The notes under the pieces: generated by a model
Told to the model about the DNA's origin: nothing
Database searches by the model: none
The model's input: the letters and a program-made list of their open reading frames with translations, nothing else
DNA from: Actinomycetota bacterium
GTDB lineage: Bacteria; Actinomycetota; Geothermincolia; Geothermincolales; RBG-13-55-18
Length of the DNA stretch: 64,000 nt
Direction of reading: 5' to 3'
Assembly (NCBI GenBank): GCA_014360655.1
Contig: JACIXC010000009.1
Span: 62,001 to 126,000, forward strand
Position numbers and translations under genes: made by a program
Shown: in pieces, positions 4,667-12,773 of the stretch
Position numbering within the stretch: position 1 is the stretch's first letter
Layout: each line of letters opens with the position of its first letter

Positions 4667-6247
4667 TTGGGCGAGAAGTTCATCGTGAGCCACGACGTGG
4701 GCACGGGCGGGAGCAAGGCGGTACTCTGCGACCTGGAAGGGAGCATCATCGCCTCCAGCTTCGAGCCCTACCCCACCTCCTACCCGCGGGCCAACTGGGC
4801 GGAACAGGACCCGCGAGACTGGTGGAAGGCGGTCACCACGAGCACGCAACGCCTGCTCAAAGAAACCAGGATAAACCCGCGCCAGGTCATAGGCACGGGT
4901 TTCGCCACCCAGATGCTTGGGGTGCTGCCGGTGGACGCCTCCGGTGATCCCCTGCGCCCGGCCATCATCTGGATCGACAGCCGCGCCGACGAGCAGGCGG
5001 CGAGGATGGTGAGGAGGTTGGGAGGACCCCGCGTGCTCATGGCGCTGGCAGGTGCGGTCCCCTCGGGCAAGGACGTCGTGTGCAAGATCCTGTGGCTCAA
5101 GGAGAAGGAGCCGGACGTCTACGCCGCCACCCACAAGATACTAGACGTCACCGGCTACCTGGTCTACCGGGCGACTGGGAACATGACCATCGACCACACC
5201 GCCGCAGGCGCCACCGGCCTGCTCAAGAACAAGACGCGGGAGTGGGACACGCTTCTCGCCAGGCTGCTGGGTATCTCCCTCGAGAAGCTCCCCGAGGTGA
5301 AGAGCTCCGTGGAGGTGGTCGGCCTGCTCACGCGCGATGCCGCAGCGGAGATGGGGCTGGAGGCGGGGACTCCCGTGATCGGCGGCATGGGGGACATCCC
5401 CGCGGCGGCCACCGGTTCCGGCGCCCTGGAGAACGGGGACGCACACATCTACCTGGGCACTTCGGGATGGCTGGTGCTCTCGGTGGCCAAGCCCAAGAAC
5501 CTGGGCAGGAACGGCATCGCCTCCATAGCCTCGGCGGACCCCGGGATGTTCCTCATGATCGGGGAGACGGAGACGGCGGGGGCCTGCCTGAAATGGTTCG
5601 CGGACAACTTCGCCACCGCGGAGGAGCGGGAGAGGGCGGCGCGGAGCGAGGACGAGATGGCCATCTTCGCCGTCCTGGACGAGGTGGTGGAGGGGGTGGA
5701 GCCGGGCGCGAGGCGGCTGCTCTTCACCCCCTGGCTCTTCGGGGAGCGCGCCCCCATCACCGACACCACCCTGCGCGCCGCCTTCGTCAACCTCTCCCTG
5801 GGTCACGAGAGGGAACACATGCTGCGCGCCATCTACGAGGGGGTGGCCTACAACTTCCGCTGGCTGGTGGACGCCGTCGCCGGGGCTGGGTTCCCCTGCC
5901 GCACCCTGCGCGCCATCGGCGGGGGGGCGCGCAGCGACGTCTGGATGCAGATCATGGCCGACGTGACGCGGCGCCCTGTGGAGGCGGTGGCGGATCCCCA
6001 GGAGGCGGGGGCCATGGGGTGCGCCCTGGCGGTGGCGGTGGCCCTGCGCGAATACGGGAGCTACCGGGATTTGAAGAAGGTGATCAGGGTGCGCCGCGCC
6101 TTCGAGCCCGACCCGCAATGCTGCACCGAGTACGACGAGCTCTACGGCGTTTTCCGCGCCCTGTACGGAAACCTGACCGGGATATGCCGGCGCCTGAACG
6201 AGACGGGGCAGGCCTGCGAGGCGCCGGCCGGTGAGGCGAGGCCATGA
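4667..6247 (+). CDS. FGGY-family carbohydrate kinase (xylulokinase-like)
   Basis: 526 residues, with a TTG start fixed by GGGAGGGAGG five bases upstream. The N-terminal phosphate loop DVGTGGSK starts at residue 10. The ATP-domain features (IGGMGDIPAAATGSG, HIYLGTSGW, and the FGGY-like FTPWLFGERAPI) are all present, followed by GGGARSDVWMQIMADV, so the kinase looks complete and active. FGGY enzymes phosphorylate ketoses, polyols or sugar acids at a terminal hydroxyl. With an oxidoreductase before it and a RuBisCO-like protein after it, the likely product is a phosphorylated ketose or ketonate used by the RuBisCO-like enzyme. The exact substrate is not determinable here. Confidence 0.9.
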   Translation: MGEKFIVSHDVGTGGSKAVLCDLEGSIIASSFEPYPTSYPRANWAEQDPRDWWKAVTTSTQRLLKETRINPRQVIGTGFATQMLGVLPVDASGDPLRPAIIWIDSRADEQAARMVRRLGGPRVLMALAGAVPSGKDVVCKILWLKEKEPDVYAATHKILDVTGYLVYRATGNMTIDHTAAGATGLLKNKTREWDTLLARLLGISLEKLPEVKSSVEVVGLLTRDAAAEMGLEAGTPVIGGMGDIPAAATGSGALENGDAHIYLGTSGWLVLSVAKPKNLGRNGIASIASADPGMFLMIGETETAGACLKWFADNFATAEERERAARSEDEMAIFAVLDEVVEGVEPGARRLLFTPWLFGERAPITDTTLRAAFVNLSLGHEREHMLRAIYEGVAYNFRWLVDAVAGAGFPCRTLRAIGGGARSDVWMQIMADVTRRPVEAVADPQEAGAMGCALAVAVALREYGSYRDLKKVIRVRRAFEPDPQCCTEYDELYGVFRALYGNLTGICRRLNETGQACEAPAGEARP

Positions 6248-6327
6248 GGACAAGGCCGTGGGAATGAGGTCATGAAAAACAGAACCCTGATCCTAACGGG
6301 TACGACGAGAGAAGAGGAGTGATGAGC

Positions 6328-7674
6328 ATGCTTTACTACGAGGCCCAGCCCAAGGCCCTCCCCGAGGGCATCGACTACGATGACTTCATCGTGGCCACCT
6401 ACTACGCCGCCCTTCCCCGCGACATGATCATGTATTACCTGGCGCCCTTCCTGGCCATAGAGCAGTCCACGGGTACCTGGACGCCGGTCCCCGGGGAGAC
6501 ACCCGAGGTGAGGGCAAAGCACGTGGCCAAGGTCATCGGCATCCACGAGGTCCCCTTCTACGAGTTCGAGGTGCCGCGGGGGGTGGAGGAGCGCACCTAC
6601 GTGGTGCAGGTCGCCTTCCCCTTCCGCAACATCGAGCACCAGATCCCCATGCTGCTCACCGCAGTAGTGGGGAACATCTCCATGGGAGGGAAGATCAAGC
6701 TCATCGACCTATACCTGCCGAAGAAGTATACGGAGGGGTTCCAGGGACCGAGGTTCGGCATCGACGGCATCTACGAGGCACTGGGGCTCGAGGAGCGGCG
6801 GCCCCTGCTCAACAACATGATCAAGCCCTGCACCGGGTATTCCTGCGAGGTGGGGGAGAAGCTCTTCTACGAGGCGGCGCTGGGCGGTTGCGACGTCATC
6901 AAGGACGACGAGCTCATCGCGGACATGGCCTTCAACCGCGTGGAGGACCGCGTGAAGGCCTACATGGCCATGGAGAAGCGCGTCTACGAGGAGACGGGCG
7001 AGCACACCCTGTACACGGTGAACGTCTCGGACAACATCCCCAGGATGTTCGAGGTGGCCAGGCGCGCCGTGGACGCCGGCGCCAACGCCATCATGGTCAA
7101 CTACCTGGCGGTGGGGCTTCCCGCGCTGCAGGCCCTGGCCGAGGATCCGGACATAAACGTGCCCATCCTGGCGCACATGGATTGCGCCGGCGCTCTCTAC
7201 GAGTCGCCCATCTCGGGCATCGCCTCCCACCTGGTGCTGGCCAAGCTGCCGCGCCTGGCGGGCGCGGACGCCATCGTCTTCCCTGCCCCCTACGGGAAGG
7301 CGCCCTACCTCAAGGACCGCTTCGTGTATACCGCGGACGTCATGCATTACCCCATGCACGACATCAAGCCAACCATGCCCATGCCCTCCGGGGGGATCAC
7401 CCCGGAGATGGTGCCCACCTGCGTTGCCGATATCGGCAGGGAGATCATGATCGGGTCCGGGGGCGGCATACACGCACATCCCATGGGCCCGGCCGCGGGC
7501 GCACGCGCCTTCCGGCAGGCCATAGACGCCACCATGCGGGGTATACCCCTGCACGAGTACGCGCGGGAGCACCAGGAGCTGGCCGTGGCCCTGGGGCTGT
7601 GGGAAGGCTTCTTCCAGGAGACCACGGCCGATAGCGGCATCGAGGCCAAGGCCCACAAGCTGGGGGAGAATTAG
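6328..7674 (+). CDS. RuBisCO-like protein (form IV-type large subunit homologue)
   Basis: 448 residues from the ATG eight bases after AGAGGAG; ATG 6322 and GTG 6319 are possible but too close to that site. The N-terminal domain keeps the RuBisCO loop EQSTGTWT (E45, W51) and VVGN (N116). The barrel has IKP (K166, equivalent to K175), the carbamylation/metal motif DVIKDDE (K192, D194, E195, equivalent to K201/D203/E204), H283 (H294), K324 (K334), PSGG (S354, equivalent to S379) and GSGGG. By eye K177 is Cys168, R295 is Met284 and H327 is Val317. Loss of these bisphosphate-binding and catalytic residues argues against RuBP carboxylation and for an enolase, isomerase or decarboxylase on another phosphorylated sugar. 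The clade is unassigned. Confidence 0.88.
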   Translation: MLYYEAQPKALPEGIDYDDFIVATYYAALPRDMIMYYLAPFLAIEQSTGTWTPVPGETPEVRAKHVAKVIGIHEVPFYEFEVPRGVEERTYVVQVAFPFRNIEHQIPMLLTAVVGNISMGGKIKLIDLYLPKKYTEGFQGPRFGIDGIYEALGLEERRPLLNNMIKPCTGYSCEVGEKLFYEAALGGCDVIKDDELIADMAFNRVEDRVKAYMAMEKRVYEETGEHTLYTVNVSDNIPRMFEVARRAVDAGANAIMVNYLAVGLPALQALAEDPDINVPILAHMDCAGALYESPISGIASHLVLAKLPRLAGADAIVFPAPYGKAPYLKDRFVYTADVMHYPMHDIKPTMPMPSGGITPEMVPTCVADIGREIMIGSGGGIHAHPMGPAAGARAFRQAIDATMRGIPLHEYAREHQELAVALGLWEGFFQETTADSGIEAKAHKLGEN

Positions 7675-7676
7675 GA

Positions 7677-7697
7677 GGAGCGGGAAAGCCCGCTTCC
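7677..7697 (+). terminator. Hairpin after the RuBisCO-like gene
   Basis: GGAGCGGG-AAAG-CCCGCTTCC can fold into a stem with one bulge directly after the stop codon. There is no T-run, so factor-independent termination is uncertain. A very similar hairpin core (GAGCGGG-ATAG-CCCGCTC) sits at 19126-19143. Confidence 0.4.
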
Positions 7698-8312
7698 CGT
7701 AGAAGATCCCTCGCTCCGGGGTCGGCGGTTCGCGGACCGTCGCGGGAATCCGCGTGAATCGGTAATACACGGTATCAGGTCCTCCCGCTCGAGGACGGCG
7801 TGCGGCTGCCCTTCGTGGCGCGCCGAGAGGCGTTGCACCCGGCCTGGATTCTTGGAAGCCGCCAGTCCCGGCCGGCGCTCCGGGGGTTGGAGGGGAGCGG
7901 CGGACCACCCCATCCTCCGCCGGCAAGGCGGGCAGGTTATCAAGAATGGAAAGCGGCAACGGGGAGCGGCGGCGGGAGGTGGCCTCCCACGGGGTAAGAT
8001 CCGTGGCCCACGACATGTCTCTATTGTCTCGGTGGGAAGCCTGTGCTAACATGATGCTACTTTTCCCACGGCCCGTAGTGGCGCGAGGGGCTTCACGGAA
8101 AGCGGGCTGTATTATCCGTCAGGAATCGGTCAAGACTACCGGCTGAACAACCCGGCTGAAAACCCGTGATAACGGTGATGGATCCGGCGACGGCCGGTAC
8201 CGAGGGCGTTTCGAGGTCTTCGCTGCCGACGCCGGGCACCGGGCTTCATCCGTGAAAGGCGGGCAAGACCGGTCGCGGGCAGCCGGTTTCACGGCCGGGA
8301 AGGGGGATGGCG
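7698..8312. other. Long leader/intergenic region before the PEP carboxylase gene
   Basis: About 615 bases without a supported gene; the short frames here lack ribosome sites and family features. It contains a good promoter (8024-8052), which would give a 5' untranslated leader of about 250 bases before the PEPC gene. The leader is rich in GCCGG/CCGGC complements (for example around 8160-8300), but I could not match it to a known riboswitch class. Confidence 0.5.
8024..8052 (+). promoter_or_regulatory. Promoter for the PEP carboxylase gene
   Basis: TTGTCT (8024-8029) and TAACAT (8047-8052) are separated by exactly 17 bases. It is the best sigma-70-like pair in the gap and points toward the PEPC gene, leaving a long untranslated leader. 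Confidence 0.5.
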
Positions 8313-9842
8313 ATGCGAAAAATCCCGAGGACCATGGCGACGCAGCACCCCGATAACGCGGCAAGCGCCTTCTGGCTGGGGAACAGCTTCATCGACAGCC
8401 GCGACGAGGTGAGGGAATGCGTGGTAGCCTTCGGCGAGCTGGGGTGCGACGAGTTCATGTGGGACTGGGAGGGCAAGTACGTCGACGAGGCGGTCATCGA
8501 GCGCGTTTTCGAGGAGAACTACTCCTTCTTCAAGAGAAAGGCCCTGGGGAGGGACATCTTTCTCACCTACCGCCTGCCCAACATATGGGTGGAGAAGGGG
8601 AGCTACCGCATCCTGCGCGCCTATGCCAACATCCTCACCGCCTGCGACATCGCCAGGGACGTGGGGTTGCATTCGCCCCCCGTCTTCGAGGTCATCCTCC
8701 CCATGACCACCTCGGCGGAGCAGCTCGTGTACCTGCAGACCAGCTTCGCGGAGATGGCGCGCCTGGTCAGGGAGGATCCGGAGAAGAGGATAGGGAGCGG
8801 GAACCCGGCGCTTATCGAAGTGATACCGCTGGTGGAGGACATCCCCGACATGCTGGGGATCGCGGACCTCATCCGCAGTTACGTGGCCCTTTACAGGAAG
8901 AGGGGCCTGGAAAAGATCAGGAAGCTCTCTTACCTGAGGCCCTTCATCGCCCGTTCGGACCCCGCCCTTAACTACGGGATGGTCTGCGCGGTCCTCGGCG
9001 TGAAGGTCGCCCTGGCGGGGGCTTACCGGGCGGCCAGCGAAAGCGGCATACGTGTTTTCCCCATCATAGGGTGCGGGAGCGTGCCCTTCCGCGGGAACCT
9101 GACGCCCGCCAGTGTCGGCCGCTTTCTCAAGGAATACTCCGGCATCAGCACGGCTACCGTCCAGTCGTCGTTCCGATACGATCATCCCGTGGAGGAGGCG
9201 GCCAGGGGCATCAGGACCCTCAAGAGGGAACTGGGGAAGCCGGTCGCCGCGGTGGAGATGGGCGGCGAGGAACGCCGGGAAGTGGAGAGGCTGCTCGGCA
9301 TCTTCAAGAAATATTACCGGGAGACCATCATGGGGGTGGCGCCGCTCATCAACGAGGCCTCGCGGCACGTGCCGCGGCGCAGGGAGAGGAGGCTGCACAC
9401 GGGGCTTTTCGGCTATTCCAGGAAGATGACCAGGGGGGTGCAGCTGCCGCGCGCCATCACCTTCACCGCTTCCCTCTATTCCCTGGGCATACCGCCGGAG
9501 ATCGTTGGAACGGGCAGGGCACTGCGCGAGGTGTACGACAAGGGGCTGAGCGAGGCGCTGAACCGCCATTACCGCAACCTGAAGCGGGACCTGCAGGACG
9601 CCTGCGCTTATGTGAACCGCGACAATATAACGCGCCTGCGGGACAGGTTACCCGTGCTGGCCGGGCTGGAGGAGGACCTGAAGTGGCTTGAAGGCGTGCT
9701 GGGCATCCCCACAGAGCCCACGGAAACCCCTCACCTCATCCACAAGAACATCACCTCGAACATACTTCTCCTGCTGGAGGAGGGCAGGGACGTTTCGGAG
9801 ATGGTGGAGGAAGCCGCCGTGCTCCGTCGCTTCCTCGGCTGA
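8313..9842 (+). CDS. ppcA: Archaeal-type phosphoenolpyruvate carboxylase
   Basis: 509 residues, about half the size of the usual bacterial PEPC and matching the compact archaeal-type family (PpcA/PEPcase_2). The hallmark N-terminus KIPRTMATQHPDN (residues 3-15) is intact. Conserved blocks include DEFMWDWEGKYVDE, FEVILPMTT, EVIPLVED and TVQSSFRYDH. It carboxylates PEP with bicarbonate to oxaloacetate, an anaplerotic step. The start is taken at the second ATG, six bases after a G-run; the ATG at 8307 touches that run. In bacteria this form is known from scattered clostridia and deep lineages, so its presence here suggests old transfer or lineage-specific retention. No neighbouring gene is functionally linked. 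Confidence 0.92.
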   Translation: MRKIPRTMATQHPDNAASAFWLGNSFIDSRDEVRECVVAFGELGCDEFMWDWEGKYVDEAVIERVFEENYSFFKRKALGRDIFLTYRLPNIWVEKGSYRILRAYANILTACDIARDVGLHSPPVFEVILPMTTSAEQLVYLQTSFAEMARLVREDPEKRIGSGNPALIEVIPLVEDIPDMLGIADLIRSYVALYRKRGLEKIRKLSYLRPFIARSDPALNYGMVCAVLGVKVALAGAYRAASESGIRVFPIIGCGSVPFRGNLTPASVGRFLKEYSGISTATVQSSFRYDHPVEEAARGIRTLKRELGKPVAAVEMGGEERREVERLLGIFKKYYRETIMGVAPLINEASRHVPRRRERRLHTGLFGYSRKMTRGVQLPRAITFTASLYSLGIPPEIVGTGRALREVYDKGLSEALNRHYRNLKRDLQDACAYVNRDNITRLRDRLPVLAGLEEDLKWLEGVLGIPTEPTETPHLIHKNITSNILLLLEEGRDVSEMVEEAAVLRRFLG

Positions 9843-9952: not shown

Positions 9953-10166
9953 CTGGGTGGTTGGAAATCCGGAGGCCGCTTGCGATGTCCCTCGCCCGAC
10001 CCCCGGACCCGGCCTGGCCATTTGCTGCGGTTTAAAGGTGTTCGATTTGTTTATCTGGAATAATATGTATAAAATGGATTGAGGATATGTGCATGGCCGT
10101 GGCTCGCGCTCTCGTCGCCGTACGGGTGCGGCGAAGGGGGTCGATGCGTCGAACCGAGGTACGGAC
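9953..10166 (+). promoter_or_regulatory. AT-rich upstream region of the DUF72 gene
   Basis: An AT-rich island (about 10031-10080) contains TAATAT (10061-10066) and TATAAA (10068-10073), with TTGTTT (10047-10052) upstream at a short 15-base spacing. A promoter here is likely but the exact boxes are uncertain. With 9843-9952 (which holds the REP-like copy), this is the whole gap between PEPC and the DUF72 gene. Confidence 0.35.
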
Positions 10167-10892
10167 TTGGAGTTAAAGGTCGGTTGCTGCGGTTTTCCAC
10201 AGGCACGCCAGATCTATTACCGGACCCTCCCGCTGGTAGAGATCCAGAAGACGTTTTACCAGCTGCCAAGGGTTAAGACCTCGCTTAAATGGCGCCAGGA
10301 AGCGCCCCCTCACTTCGAGTTCACCATCAAGGCCTGGCAGCTTATAACCCACCGTCCCTCCAGCCCCACCTACCGGCGCCTTACCCACCCCATACCGGAG
10401 GAGCTCAAGGAGGCGTACGGCTCCTTCAGGCCCACGCCCGAGAACTACGCCGCCTGGAGGGAGACCATGGAGGTCGCCCACGCCCTGGAGGCCGAGATAG
10501 TGGTCTTCCAGACGCCGCCGACCTTCGGCCCGGGGCCGAAGAACGTGGCGCAGATGCGCGAGTTCATGTCCACCATAGAGAGGGACGGCCTCCGGCTGGC
10601 ATGGGAGCCGCGGGGCTCCTGGAGCTCCGAGGAGGTGGGCAGGATATGCCGCGAACTGGACCTCATACACGTGGTCGACCCTTTCCAGGGGAGGGAGAAA
10701 TGGGGTTCCGTCATCTACTGGCGCCTGCACGGGATAGGGGGCTACAAGCACCGCTATACCGACCAGGAGCTGGGGAAGATCGTGACCATGCTCAAGAAGA
10801 GCAAGAAGAAGAAGGCATACGTCCTTTTCAACAACATCTTCATGTGGGAGGACGCTCAGCGCTTCCTGGAGATCTGGGGTAAGAGGGCCTGA
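10167..10892 (+). CDS. DUF72 (YecE-like) TIM-barrel protein
   Basis: 241 residues from a TTG six bases after GAGGT; the homologous part starts exactly there (KVGCCGFP). A longer ATG frame at 10089 adds only low-complexity arginine-rich sequence. DUF72 features include the N-terminal GCCGF, EIQKTFYQLPRVKTSLKW, FEFTIKAWQ, the helix with PENYAAWRET, VVFQTPPTF, LAWEPRGSW and the C-terminal YVLFNNIFMWEDA. The family is widespread and conserved, but its reaction is unproven. No operon partner is evident. Confidence 0.85.
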   Translation: MELKVGCCGFPQARQIYYRTLPLVEIQKTFYQLPRVKTSLKWRQEAPPHFEFTIKAWQLITHRPSSPTYRRLTHPIPEELKEAYGSFRPTPENYAAWRETMEVAHALEAEIVVFQTPPTFGPGPKNVAQMREFMSTIERDGLRLAWEPRGSWSSEEVGRICRELDLIHVVDPFQGREKWGSVIYWRLHGIGGYKHRYTDQELGKIVTMLKKSKKKKAYVLFNNIFMWEDAQRFLEIWGKRA

Positions 10893-10985: not shown

Positions 10986-11414
10986 TCACTCGCGCCCGCC
11001 CCGGTGCGAGCCGCCCCCGCCCGTCTCGAGGACTCTCGATATCTCCAGCAAGAAGGCCCTTGCATCATTCAGGCACGCCGACGTCGTCAGGGGATCCGCC
11101 TCCATCTCCCCCGATACGGCCACCCTGTAGTAGAGGTCGCGCACGATGACGAGGGCGCGCCGGTTCCCTGGGCTCAGGCCCATGGAGAGAGCCGCCTCCC
11201 GGAAACGCTCCACCACGTCATCCCATCCCGCGATCTCCTCGTGCCTCCCGCTCAAGGCCGCCCTCGCCGCGTAGAGCATGGCCAGGAACGAGTTGGTGAT
11301 GGCTTCCTCGTGGAGTCCCCCCAGCATCATCTCCTCCGCCGCGCCCAGGGCCATCCCGGCCTGCTCCAGCCAGGCATCCCTCTGCGCTTCCTGGTCCCAC
11401 GGGTCTTCCGTCAC
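10986..11414 (-). CDS. HEPN-domain protein (UPF0332-like), solitary
   Basis: 142 residues from a GTG start with GGGAGG eleven bases upstream. The helical core EEAITNSFLAMLYAARAALSGRH, a middle helix and the C-terminal LYYRVAVSG...ACLNDARAFLLEISRVL match the HEPN/UPF0332 layout, in which an N-terminal helical hairpin is followed by an R/Y-rich helix and a last amphipathic helix. Many HEPN proteins are RNases or toxins paired with MNT nucleotidyltransferase antitoxins. No MNT gene is adjacent and the best RX4-6H candidate (R-A-A-L-S-G-R-H) lies in the middle of the protein. It could be an orphan toxin-like domain or a house-keeping HEPN. Confidence 0.65.
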   Translation of the reverse strand: MTEDPWDQEAQRDAWLEQAGMALGAAEEMMLGGLHEEAITNSFLAMLYAARAALSGRHEEIAGWDDVVERFREAALSMGLSPGNRRALVIVRDLYYRVAVSGEMEADPLTTSACLNDARAFLLEISRVLETGGGGSHRGGRE

Positions 11415-11909: not shown

Positions 11910-12773
11910 GTGGAGTTCTTCAAGTATCACAGCCTGGGCAACGACTTCATCCTGCTTAACGCGATGGAGGCGCCGCTCCGCCTGCCCCCCGAGGACATCC
12001 GCGACCTGTGCGACCGCCACCGGGGTATCGGCGGGGACGGCATAATCATGATCGAACCCTCTGCGAAGGCGGTCTGCCGCATGGTCAACTACAACCCCGA
12101 CGCCAGCGAGGCGGACGTGAGCGGCAACGGGCTGCGCTGCCTGGCCAAGCACCTCTATGACACGGGTTTCTTCCCGCACAGCGTCATGGAGGTGGAAACG
12201 CCTTCCGGGATCCGCGAGGTGCGGGTGCACGTGGCGGTGGGGAGGGTGGGCACAATAGAGGTGAACATGGGAAAGCCCGACTTTCGCCGCAGCTCCATAC
12301 CCATGAAAGGAGAGGGCGAGGAGGCGGTGGACATACCCATCCCGGTGGGTGAAACCGTGCTGTCGGCGACCTGCCTCTCCATGGGAACCCCCCACTGCGT
12401 CATCTTCGTGAACGATCTCGTAGCCACGCCGGTGAGCGAATTGGGGCCGCGGGTGGAGAACCATCCCCTCTTTCCCCTGAGGGTGAACGCGGAGTTCGCG
12501 CAGGTGATCGACGTCTCGGAGATGAGGTTGCGATCCTGGGAGAGGGGCGCCGGCGAAACGCTGGCCAGCGCCGCGGGCGCCTCGGCGGCGGTGGCTGCCG
12601 CCCTGCGCACCGGCAGGTGCAAGAGGAAGGTGCATGTGCAGCTCCCCGGCGGCCTCATGGAGGTGGAGGTGAACGACGCGGGCGAGGTGCTCACGCGGGG
12701 GACGGCGCGACGCGTCTTCCGGGGTATCCTGGACGAGGACTGGCGGGAAAGGAGTCGCCTCTTCCTCGCATAA
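11910..12773 (+). CDS. dapF: Diaminopimelate epimerase homologue with both catalytic Cys replaced by Ser
   Basis: 287 residues. The fold markers are clear: FFKYHSLGNDFILL at the start, GGDG (41-44), YNPDASEADVSGNGLRC (61-77), NAEFAQVI and ERGAGETLASAAGASA (about 211-226). In DapF the two catalytic bases are cysteines in (E)xxCGNGxRC and GETxACGTGAC. Here they are Ser71 (AGC, 12120-12122) and Ser220 (AGC, 12567-12569), and the adjacent glycines also differ. Classical cofactor-independent racemisation of LL-DAP is therefore doubtful: it may be a paralogue with another substrate, a binding protein, or an enzyme using serines. The GTG start is set by homology; an AGGAGG lies 13 bases upstream. 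The gene stands alone. Confidence 0.8.
   Translation: MEFFKYHSLGNDFILLNAMEAPLRLPPEDIRDLCDRHRGIGGDGIIMIEPSAKAVCRMVNYNPDASEADVSGNGLRCLAKHLYDTGFFPHSVMEVETPSGIREVRVHVAVGRVGTIEVNMGKPDFRRSSIPMKGEGEEAVDIPIPVGETVLSATCLSMGTPHCVIFVNDLVATPVSELGPRVENHPLFPLRVNAEFAQVIDVSEMRLRSWERGAGETLASAAGASAAVAAALRTGRCKRKVHVQLPGGLMEVEVNDAGEVLTRGTARRVFRGILDEDWRERSRLFLA

What the first reader, a model, noticed from the sequence alone, without database searches (positions are those of the whole stretch)
11910..12773. DapF homologue with both catalytic cysteines changed to serine
The two motifs that hold the catalytic thiols of diaminopimelate epimerase read VSGNGLRC and GETLASAAGASA here, with AGC codons at 12120-12122 and 12567-12569. 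Both changes occur at exactly equivalent positions while the rest of the fold motifs are kept, so random error is unlikely. Known: single Cys-to-Ser changes abolish racemisation in studied DapF enzymes. Inference: a re-purposed family member or a serine-based epimerase; the genome may carry a second, normal DapF or use an aminotransferase route to meso-DAP.
Basis: partly seen in the sequence, partly recalled or inferred. Interest (0 to 1): 0.7.

Follow-up and report, generated by a model that had tools for sequence, protein, structure and literature searches.

The report
DapF paralogue with a serine pair
This bacterium carries, besides a normal diaminopimelate epimerase, a second conserved copy whose two catalytic cysteines are both serine; a related family of bacteria appears to have only the serine version, which suggests that the textbook two-thiol chemistry is not obligatory in this enzyme family.

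Summary
At 11910-12773 lies a full-length DapF homologue with Ser (AGC) at both catalytic Cys positions (S71, S220). It is not an error: the Ser/Ser form is a single clade, Ser/Ser in 12 of 12 sequences from seven genera and two families of Ca. Solincola-type Actinomycetota, under strong purifying selection and more conserved than the true DapF of the same genomes. The genome also has a normal Cys/Cys DapF in a miaA-dapF-dapL block, and no Ddh. So this is a paralogue, not the housekeeping epimerase. It keeps most DAP ligands but has changed two whose loss nearly abolishes Corynebacterium DapF (N157 to T160, T219 to A222), so ordinary DAP epimerase activity is unlikely. It sits beside a DUF72 gene in all 12 genomes and is cleanly missing from that locus in one relative. 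Following the motif outwards gave a stronger result: one actinobacterial family, containing a genome whose length equals that of Conexibacter woesei (meso-DAP wall), has a single DapF, Ser/Ser in every copy inspected, beside miaA and dapL, with all ligands kept and no Ddh in the eight genomes tested. Hence Ser/Ser is probably not dead in this fold. Best reading: a re-purposed serine-pair family member. All function is inferred.

The parts
11910..12773 (+). Ser/Ser DapF paralogue, 287 aa
   Evidence: TIGR00652 246.4 bits; conserved in 12 genomes; AlphaFold2 model pLDDT 92.7, closest solved structure a DAP epimerase, Z 39.8, 1.4 A over 271 residues
12120..12122 (+). Ser71 codon (AGC), at the position of catalytic Cys73 of H. 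influenzae DapF
   Evidence: Ser in 12/12 orthologues, AGC or AGT
12567..12569 (+). Ser220 codon (AGC), at the position of catalytic Cys217
   Evidence: Ser in 12/12 orthologues
12570..12575 (+). Ala221-Ala222, at the positions of Gly218-Thr219 (carboxylate-binding loop)
   Evidence: Ala221 in 12/12, Ala222 in 8/12 (Thr in 4)
12387..12389 (+). Thr160, at the position of DAP ligand Asn157
   Evidence: T 7, S 2, N 3 of 12; always Asn in the housekeeping DapFs of the order
12732..12770 (+). C-terminal tail DEDWRERSRxxLA specific to the Ser/Ser paralogues
   Evidence: alignment; absent from the Cys/Cys DapFs listed
10089..10892 (+). DUF72 protein gene, conserved upstream partner in all 12 loci
   Evidence: PF01904 123.6 bits; synteny; close orthologues only in families f1 and f2
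10986..11414 (-). HEPN-domain protein gene between DUF72 and the paralogue; missing in G007
   Evidence: PF05168 30.5 bits; synteny in 11 of 12 loci

Best explanation
The gene encodes a neofunctionalised DapF paralogue. Shown: intact DapF family score and predicted fold, Ser/Ser fixed in a single conserved clade, a separate Cys/Cys DapF in the housekeeping operon position, retention of the residues that hold the distal L-amino-acid group of DAP (N62, N193, E211, R212) together with N11 and N73, and loss of two further DAP ligands. Inferred: it still closes over an amino acid or diamino acid, and its two helix-capping serines act as the general base and acid (or orient the substrate) in an epimerisation or elimination whose substrate is not, or no longer mainly, LL-DAP. 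The proline racemase superfamily is the model: Ser/Cys there epimerises and Ser/Thr dehydrates. It probably acts in a pathway with the neighbouring DUF72 protein. The substrate is unknown.
For: Single clade of 12, SH-aLRT 100. Ser/Ser in all 12. dN about 0.09, dS about 0.8 between G000 and G001, and SS identity above DapF identity in 36/36 genome pairs, mean 71 v 62%. Model close to a DAP epimerase solved with bound DAP analogues. Normal DapF between miaA and dapL. N157 and T219 positions changed, whose Ala mutants nearly abolish CgDapF activity (PMC5296763). DUF72 beside it in 12/12. Ser can replace Cys in a working active site of the same fold: 4HypE Ser93/Cys236 and t3HypD Ser90/Thr256 (PMC4113996). 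Ser/Ser is the only DapF form seen in family f43.
Against: No substrate, no assay, and no pathway gene nearby: DUF72 has no known function. Engineered Cys-to-Ser in DapF-fold racemases leaves under 0.1% activity (PMC8225329). Both serines use AGY codons only, so no TCN/AGY switching here proves selection for Ser. The gene is cleanly missing from its locus in G003, so the function is dispensable. Gly218 is Ala in all 12, which could obstruct substrate.
Confidence: 0.5

Rival explanations
1. Pseudoenzyme: a catalytically dead DapF kept as a ligand-binding or protein-binding regulator, for example a DAP sensor, a heterodimer partner of the Cys/Cys DapF, or an activator of another enzyme.
For: Both Cys gone and two further ligands changed. 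Precedent: E. coli DapF C73A/C217A still binds and activates RppH (PMC4227774). Distal recognition residues kept in 12/12. A conserved C-terminal tail absent from the Cys/Cys DapFs.
Against: Both positions are Ser in 12/12 rather than a mix of Ala, Gly and Thr. Ser/Ser appears functional elsewhere in the family. No partner shown.
Confidence: 0.3
2. A second, oxidation-proof DAP epimerase: Ser/Ser cannot form the inactivating disulfide of Cys/Cys DapF and backs it up under oxidation.
For: CgDapF is switched off by a disulfide between its catalytic Cys (PMC5296763). Family f43, including the C. woesei genome, seems to depend on a Ser/Ser DapF. Three SS paralogues (L010, L013, L028) keep N157 and T219.
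Against: The window protein has T160 and A222, positions where Ala mutants of CgDapF are almost inactive; Ala221 in all 12; not in the dap operon; absent from the locus in G003.
Confidence: 0.15
3. Sequencing or assembly error, or a decaying pseudogene.
For: None found beyond the surprising residues themselves.
Against: Same Ser/Ser in 12 separately assembled genomes; open frame; dN/dS about 0.11.
Confidence: 0.01

Closest known systems
Diaminopimelate epimerase DapF (TIGR00652), Cys/Cys
   Same: Length, predicted fold, and most substrate-binding residues; 45% identity to the genome's own DapF
   Different: Both catalytic Cys are Ser; G218A, T219A, N157T; a C-terminal tail; not in the dap operon
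Ser/Ser DapF of actinobacterial family f43 (includes a genome of exactly the C. woesei length)
   Same: Ser at both catalytic positions
   Different: Only DapF in its genomes, beside miaA and dapL, keeps G218, T219 and N157; 34-38% identity; common origin neither shown nor rejected (AU p 0.56-0.65)
Proline racemase superfamily members with Ser: 4HypE Avi_0518 (Ser/Cys) and t3HypD Avi_7022 (Ser/Thr), PMC4113996
   Same: Same overall fold; Ser at the first catalytic position in working enzymes
   Different: About 11-15% identity; neither is Ser/Ser; different substrates
PLP-independent amino acid racemases of DapF type: histidine racemases HisR and CntK, PddB, O-ureidoserine racemase
   Same: DapF-like family members with other substrates
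   Different: Described as Cys/Cys enzymes; Cys-to-Ser mutants of HisR and PddB are nearly inactive (PMC11602996, PMC8225329)

Membership tests
DapF (TIGR00652 / PF01678) | Sequence score above the curated cut-offs | tested here: met
   246.4 v 114.65 bits; 171.1 v 34.7 bits
DapF (TIGR00652 / PF01678) | DapF fold over the full length | tested here: met
   Model pLDDT 92.7; 9mro_A Z 39.8, 1.4 A over 271 residues; the model itself was built from DapF-family rows
DapF (TIGR00652 / PF01678) | Two catalytic cysteines | tested here: not met
   Ser71 and Ser220, 12/12 orthologues
DapF (TIGR00652 / PF01678) | DAP ligands N11, N64, N75, N190, E208, R209 | tested here: met
   All present, 12/12
DapF (TIGR00652 / PF01678) | DAP ligands N157 and T219 (S219 in some DapFs) | tested here: not met
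   T160 and A222 in the window protein; variable in the clade
DapF (TIGR00652 / PF01678) | Place in the dap operon | tested here: not met
   The Cys/Cys copy lies between miaA and dapL; this copy lies beside DUF72
DapF (TIGR00652 / PF01678) | LL-DAP epimerase activity | not testable with these tools
   No assay
Ser-type proline racemase superfamily enzymes | Same overall fold | tested here: met
   4lb0, 4k7g Z about 27, 14-15% identity
Ser-type proline racemase superfamily enzymes | Catalytic Ser positioned by an Asn three residues on | tested here: not met
   S71-G72-N73-G74: the residue three on is Gly, by sequence (motif from PMC4113996)
Non-catalytic DapF regulator (RppH activator type) | Binding to and stimulation of a partner enzyme | not testable with these tools
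   Precedent only (PMC4227774)

The most novel reading that the evidence does not exclude
The DapF fold supports two-base epimerisation with a serine-serine pair. Family f43, which includes a genome of exactly the Conexibacter woesei length, makes meso-DAP with a Ser/Ser DapF, and the Solincola paralogue is a further serine-pair enzyme, perhaps of separate origin, re-aimed at another substrate.
Probability: 0.4. Interest if true: 0.8.

Novelty: new variant of a known kind. Interest (0 to 1): 0.6.

Why it matters
DapF is the textbook example of a cofactor-free epimerase using two cysteine thiols to move a proton of pKa about 29, and an antibacterial drug target attacked through those thiols. 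A conserved Ser/Ser paralogue, and a family of bacteria with meso-DAP that seems to rely on Ser/Ser DapF alone, make it directly testable whether a hydroxyl pair can do the job and how proteins adjust to it. It also warns that the usual inference 'catalytic Cys missing, therefore dead' is unsafe in this family.

Tried and rejected
Error or pseudogene: rejected by 12 orthologues and by dN/dS. Functional guess from operon partners: the only constant neighbours are DUF72 (unknown function) and a HEPN protein on the other strand; downstream genes differ between genera (MscL here; FmdE-like and glyoxalase-like genes, named by eye, in others), so no pathway could be read. DUF72 homologues in G027 and G028 were examined, but no DapF was recognised in the parts of those loci I read. 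Common origin of the two Ser/Ser groups: AU test did not reject (p 0.65; 0.56 with the catalytic motifs masked), trees unresolved. Literature searches for a natural Ser/Ser DapF found none, but the library lacks most subscription journals. Species names of G handles are hidden; C. woesei was identified only by exact contig length.

Full report
Observation. The ORF 11910-12773 (GTG start, 287 aa) is a full-length DapF homologue with AGC at both catalytic positions, as reported. It passes the DapF equivalog cut-off by a wide margin (246.4 v 114.65 bits). In alignments to solved DapFs its S71 and S220 lie on Cys73 and Cys217 of H. influenzae DapF (H. influenzae numbering from established knowledge).

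Not an error. The window lies in a nearly complete genome (99.96%, 35 contigs). The class search returned 31 genomes, and named hits from the same group include Candidatus Solincola. Twelve of the 31 carry an orthologue at 60% identity or more, in seven genera of two families. All 12 are Ser/Ser with Ala at 221. They form one clade with SH-aLRT 100. Between the window genome and its congener dN is 0.094 and dS 0.82. Over 36 genome pairs the paralogue is always more conserved than the true DapF (mean 71 v 62%; the pairs are not independent).

A normal DapF exists. The same genome has a Cys/Cys copy at G000:C10:85851-86696. It lies between miaA and an LL-DAP aminotransferase gene (dapL); the same gene order is seen in the five genomes of the order compared, with miaA and dapL confirmed by profile in two of them. 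No Ddh was found in the four genomes of the order tested, and LysA is present in all four. So the paralogue is not needed to explain meso-DAP or lysine.

Context. Upstream on the same strand, in all 12 loci, is a DUF72 gene; a HEPN gene on the other strand lies between in 11. Close DUF72 orthologues (65% or more) occur only in these two families. In G003 the contig reads DUF72, HEPN, about 150 bp, FmdE-like, glyoxalase-like, so the paralogue is cleanly missing from the place it holds in sister genera; G003 keeps a DapF with Cys at the first position (L017, partial). In G004 and G016 the contig ends soon after DUF72, so absence there means nothing.

Active site. CgDapF bound to DAP holds the reacting carboxylate with backbone NH of G84, N85, G222 and T223 and side chains of N85 and T223, and the distal end with N74, N159, N194, E212 and R213; N15A, N74A, N85A, N159A, N194A, E212A, R213A and T223A were almost inactive (PMC5296763). 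The window protein keeps the equivalents of N15, N74, N85, N194, E212 and R213, but not N159 (Thr) and T223 (Ala). Three members of the clade (L010, L013, L028), one from the second family, still have both. This suggests that Cys-to-Ser and G218A came first and drift away from the DAP ligand set later, in some lineages (inference). The AlphaFold2 model (pLDDT 92.7) is nearest to a DAP epimerase solved with bound DAP analogues (9mro, Z 39.8, 1.4 A).

Ser elsewhere in the family. A DNA pattern for Ser (AGY codon) at the second position, run on 396 Actinomycetota, found the 12 plus seven others. Three of these are Ser/Ser, from family f43; four are Cys/Ser, from f18 and f31. In f43, 77 of 81 genomes have exactly one DapF match and none has two. 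All f43 DapFs whose motifs could be read are Ser/Ser (31 loci, 32), with Ser written by TCN and AGY codons at both sites. All known DAP ligands, G218 and T219 are kept. None of eight f43 genomes tested has Ddh and all 12 tested have LysA. One member, G428, is a single contig of 6,359,369 bases, exactly the published C. woesei genome length. That paper gives C. woesei an A1gamma wall based on meso-DAP. In G428 the single dapF is Ser/Ser and lies between miaA and dapL. So either this Ser/Ser protein epimerises LL-DAP, or an enzyme not recognised here does. G428 itself was not searched for Ddh.

Intermediate forms. G007 has, in the miaA-dapF-dapL position, a Ser/Cys protein (Ser codon TCA, two bases from TGC), and no Cys/Cys copy was found (92% complete). 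L064 is also Ser/Cys. In the proline racemase superfamily Ser/Cys (4HypE) and Ser/Thr (t3HypD) enzymes are active (PMC4113996). Against this, engineered Cys-to-Ser mutants in DapF-like racemases retain under 0.1% (PMC8225329) or greatly reduced activity (HisR, PMC11602996).

Judgement. The window protein is a stable, selected, re-purposed DapF paralogue. Because Ser/Ser seems to work in f43, I rate an active serine-pair enzyme on another amino acid (0.5) above a non-catalytic binder (0.3; precedent PMC4227774) and above an oxidation-proof second DAP epimerase (0.15). Whether the two Ser/Ser groups share an origin is open: the tree test does not decide, though the C. woesei protein is closer to the Cys/Cys DapF of the window genome (42%) than to the window paralogue (34%).

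Noticed in passing
L236 (G428:C1:3459001-3471000), ORF 5097-5963 +; loci L199-L206, L210-L233: Family f43 of Actinomycetota, including a genome of exactly the C. woesei length, has a Ser/Ser DapF as its only DapF, beside miaA and dapL, with no Ddh in eight members tested: candidate serine-pair DAP epimerase.
   Followed up: partly
L183-L186, L191-L198: Two further actinobacterial families (f18, f31) have a Cys/Ser DapF (C73 kept, C217 to Ser) as the only copy found in the eight genomes read. f18 contains a contig of 3,225,748 bases (G069), which from memory is the Rubrobacter xylanophilus genome length.
   Followed up: partly
L020 / L247 6967-7809 - (G007:C63:31970-32788): In G007 the operon DapF is Ser/Cys (TCA codon), with no Cys/Cys copy found, while the Ser/Ser paralogue is also present. 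L064 is another Ser/Cys DapF.
   Followed up: partly
L159 (G003:C242) 1339-1488: Clean absence of the Ser/Ser gene between the HEPN and FmdE-like genes at an otherwise conserved locus.
   Followed up: yes
window 4667-9842 +: FGGY-family sugar kinase, RuBisCO large-subunit homologue and archaeal-type PEP carboxylase (PEPcase_2) genes in a row; RuBisCO form not determined.
   Followed up: no
L155 and L156 (G027, G028): More distant DUF72 homologues (45-49% identity) in two genomes of the class for which the searches returned only one DapF each.
   Followed up: partly
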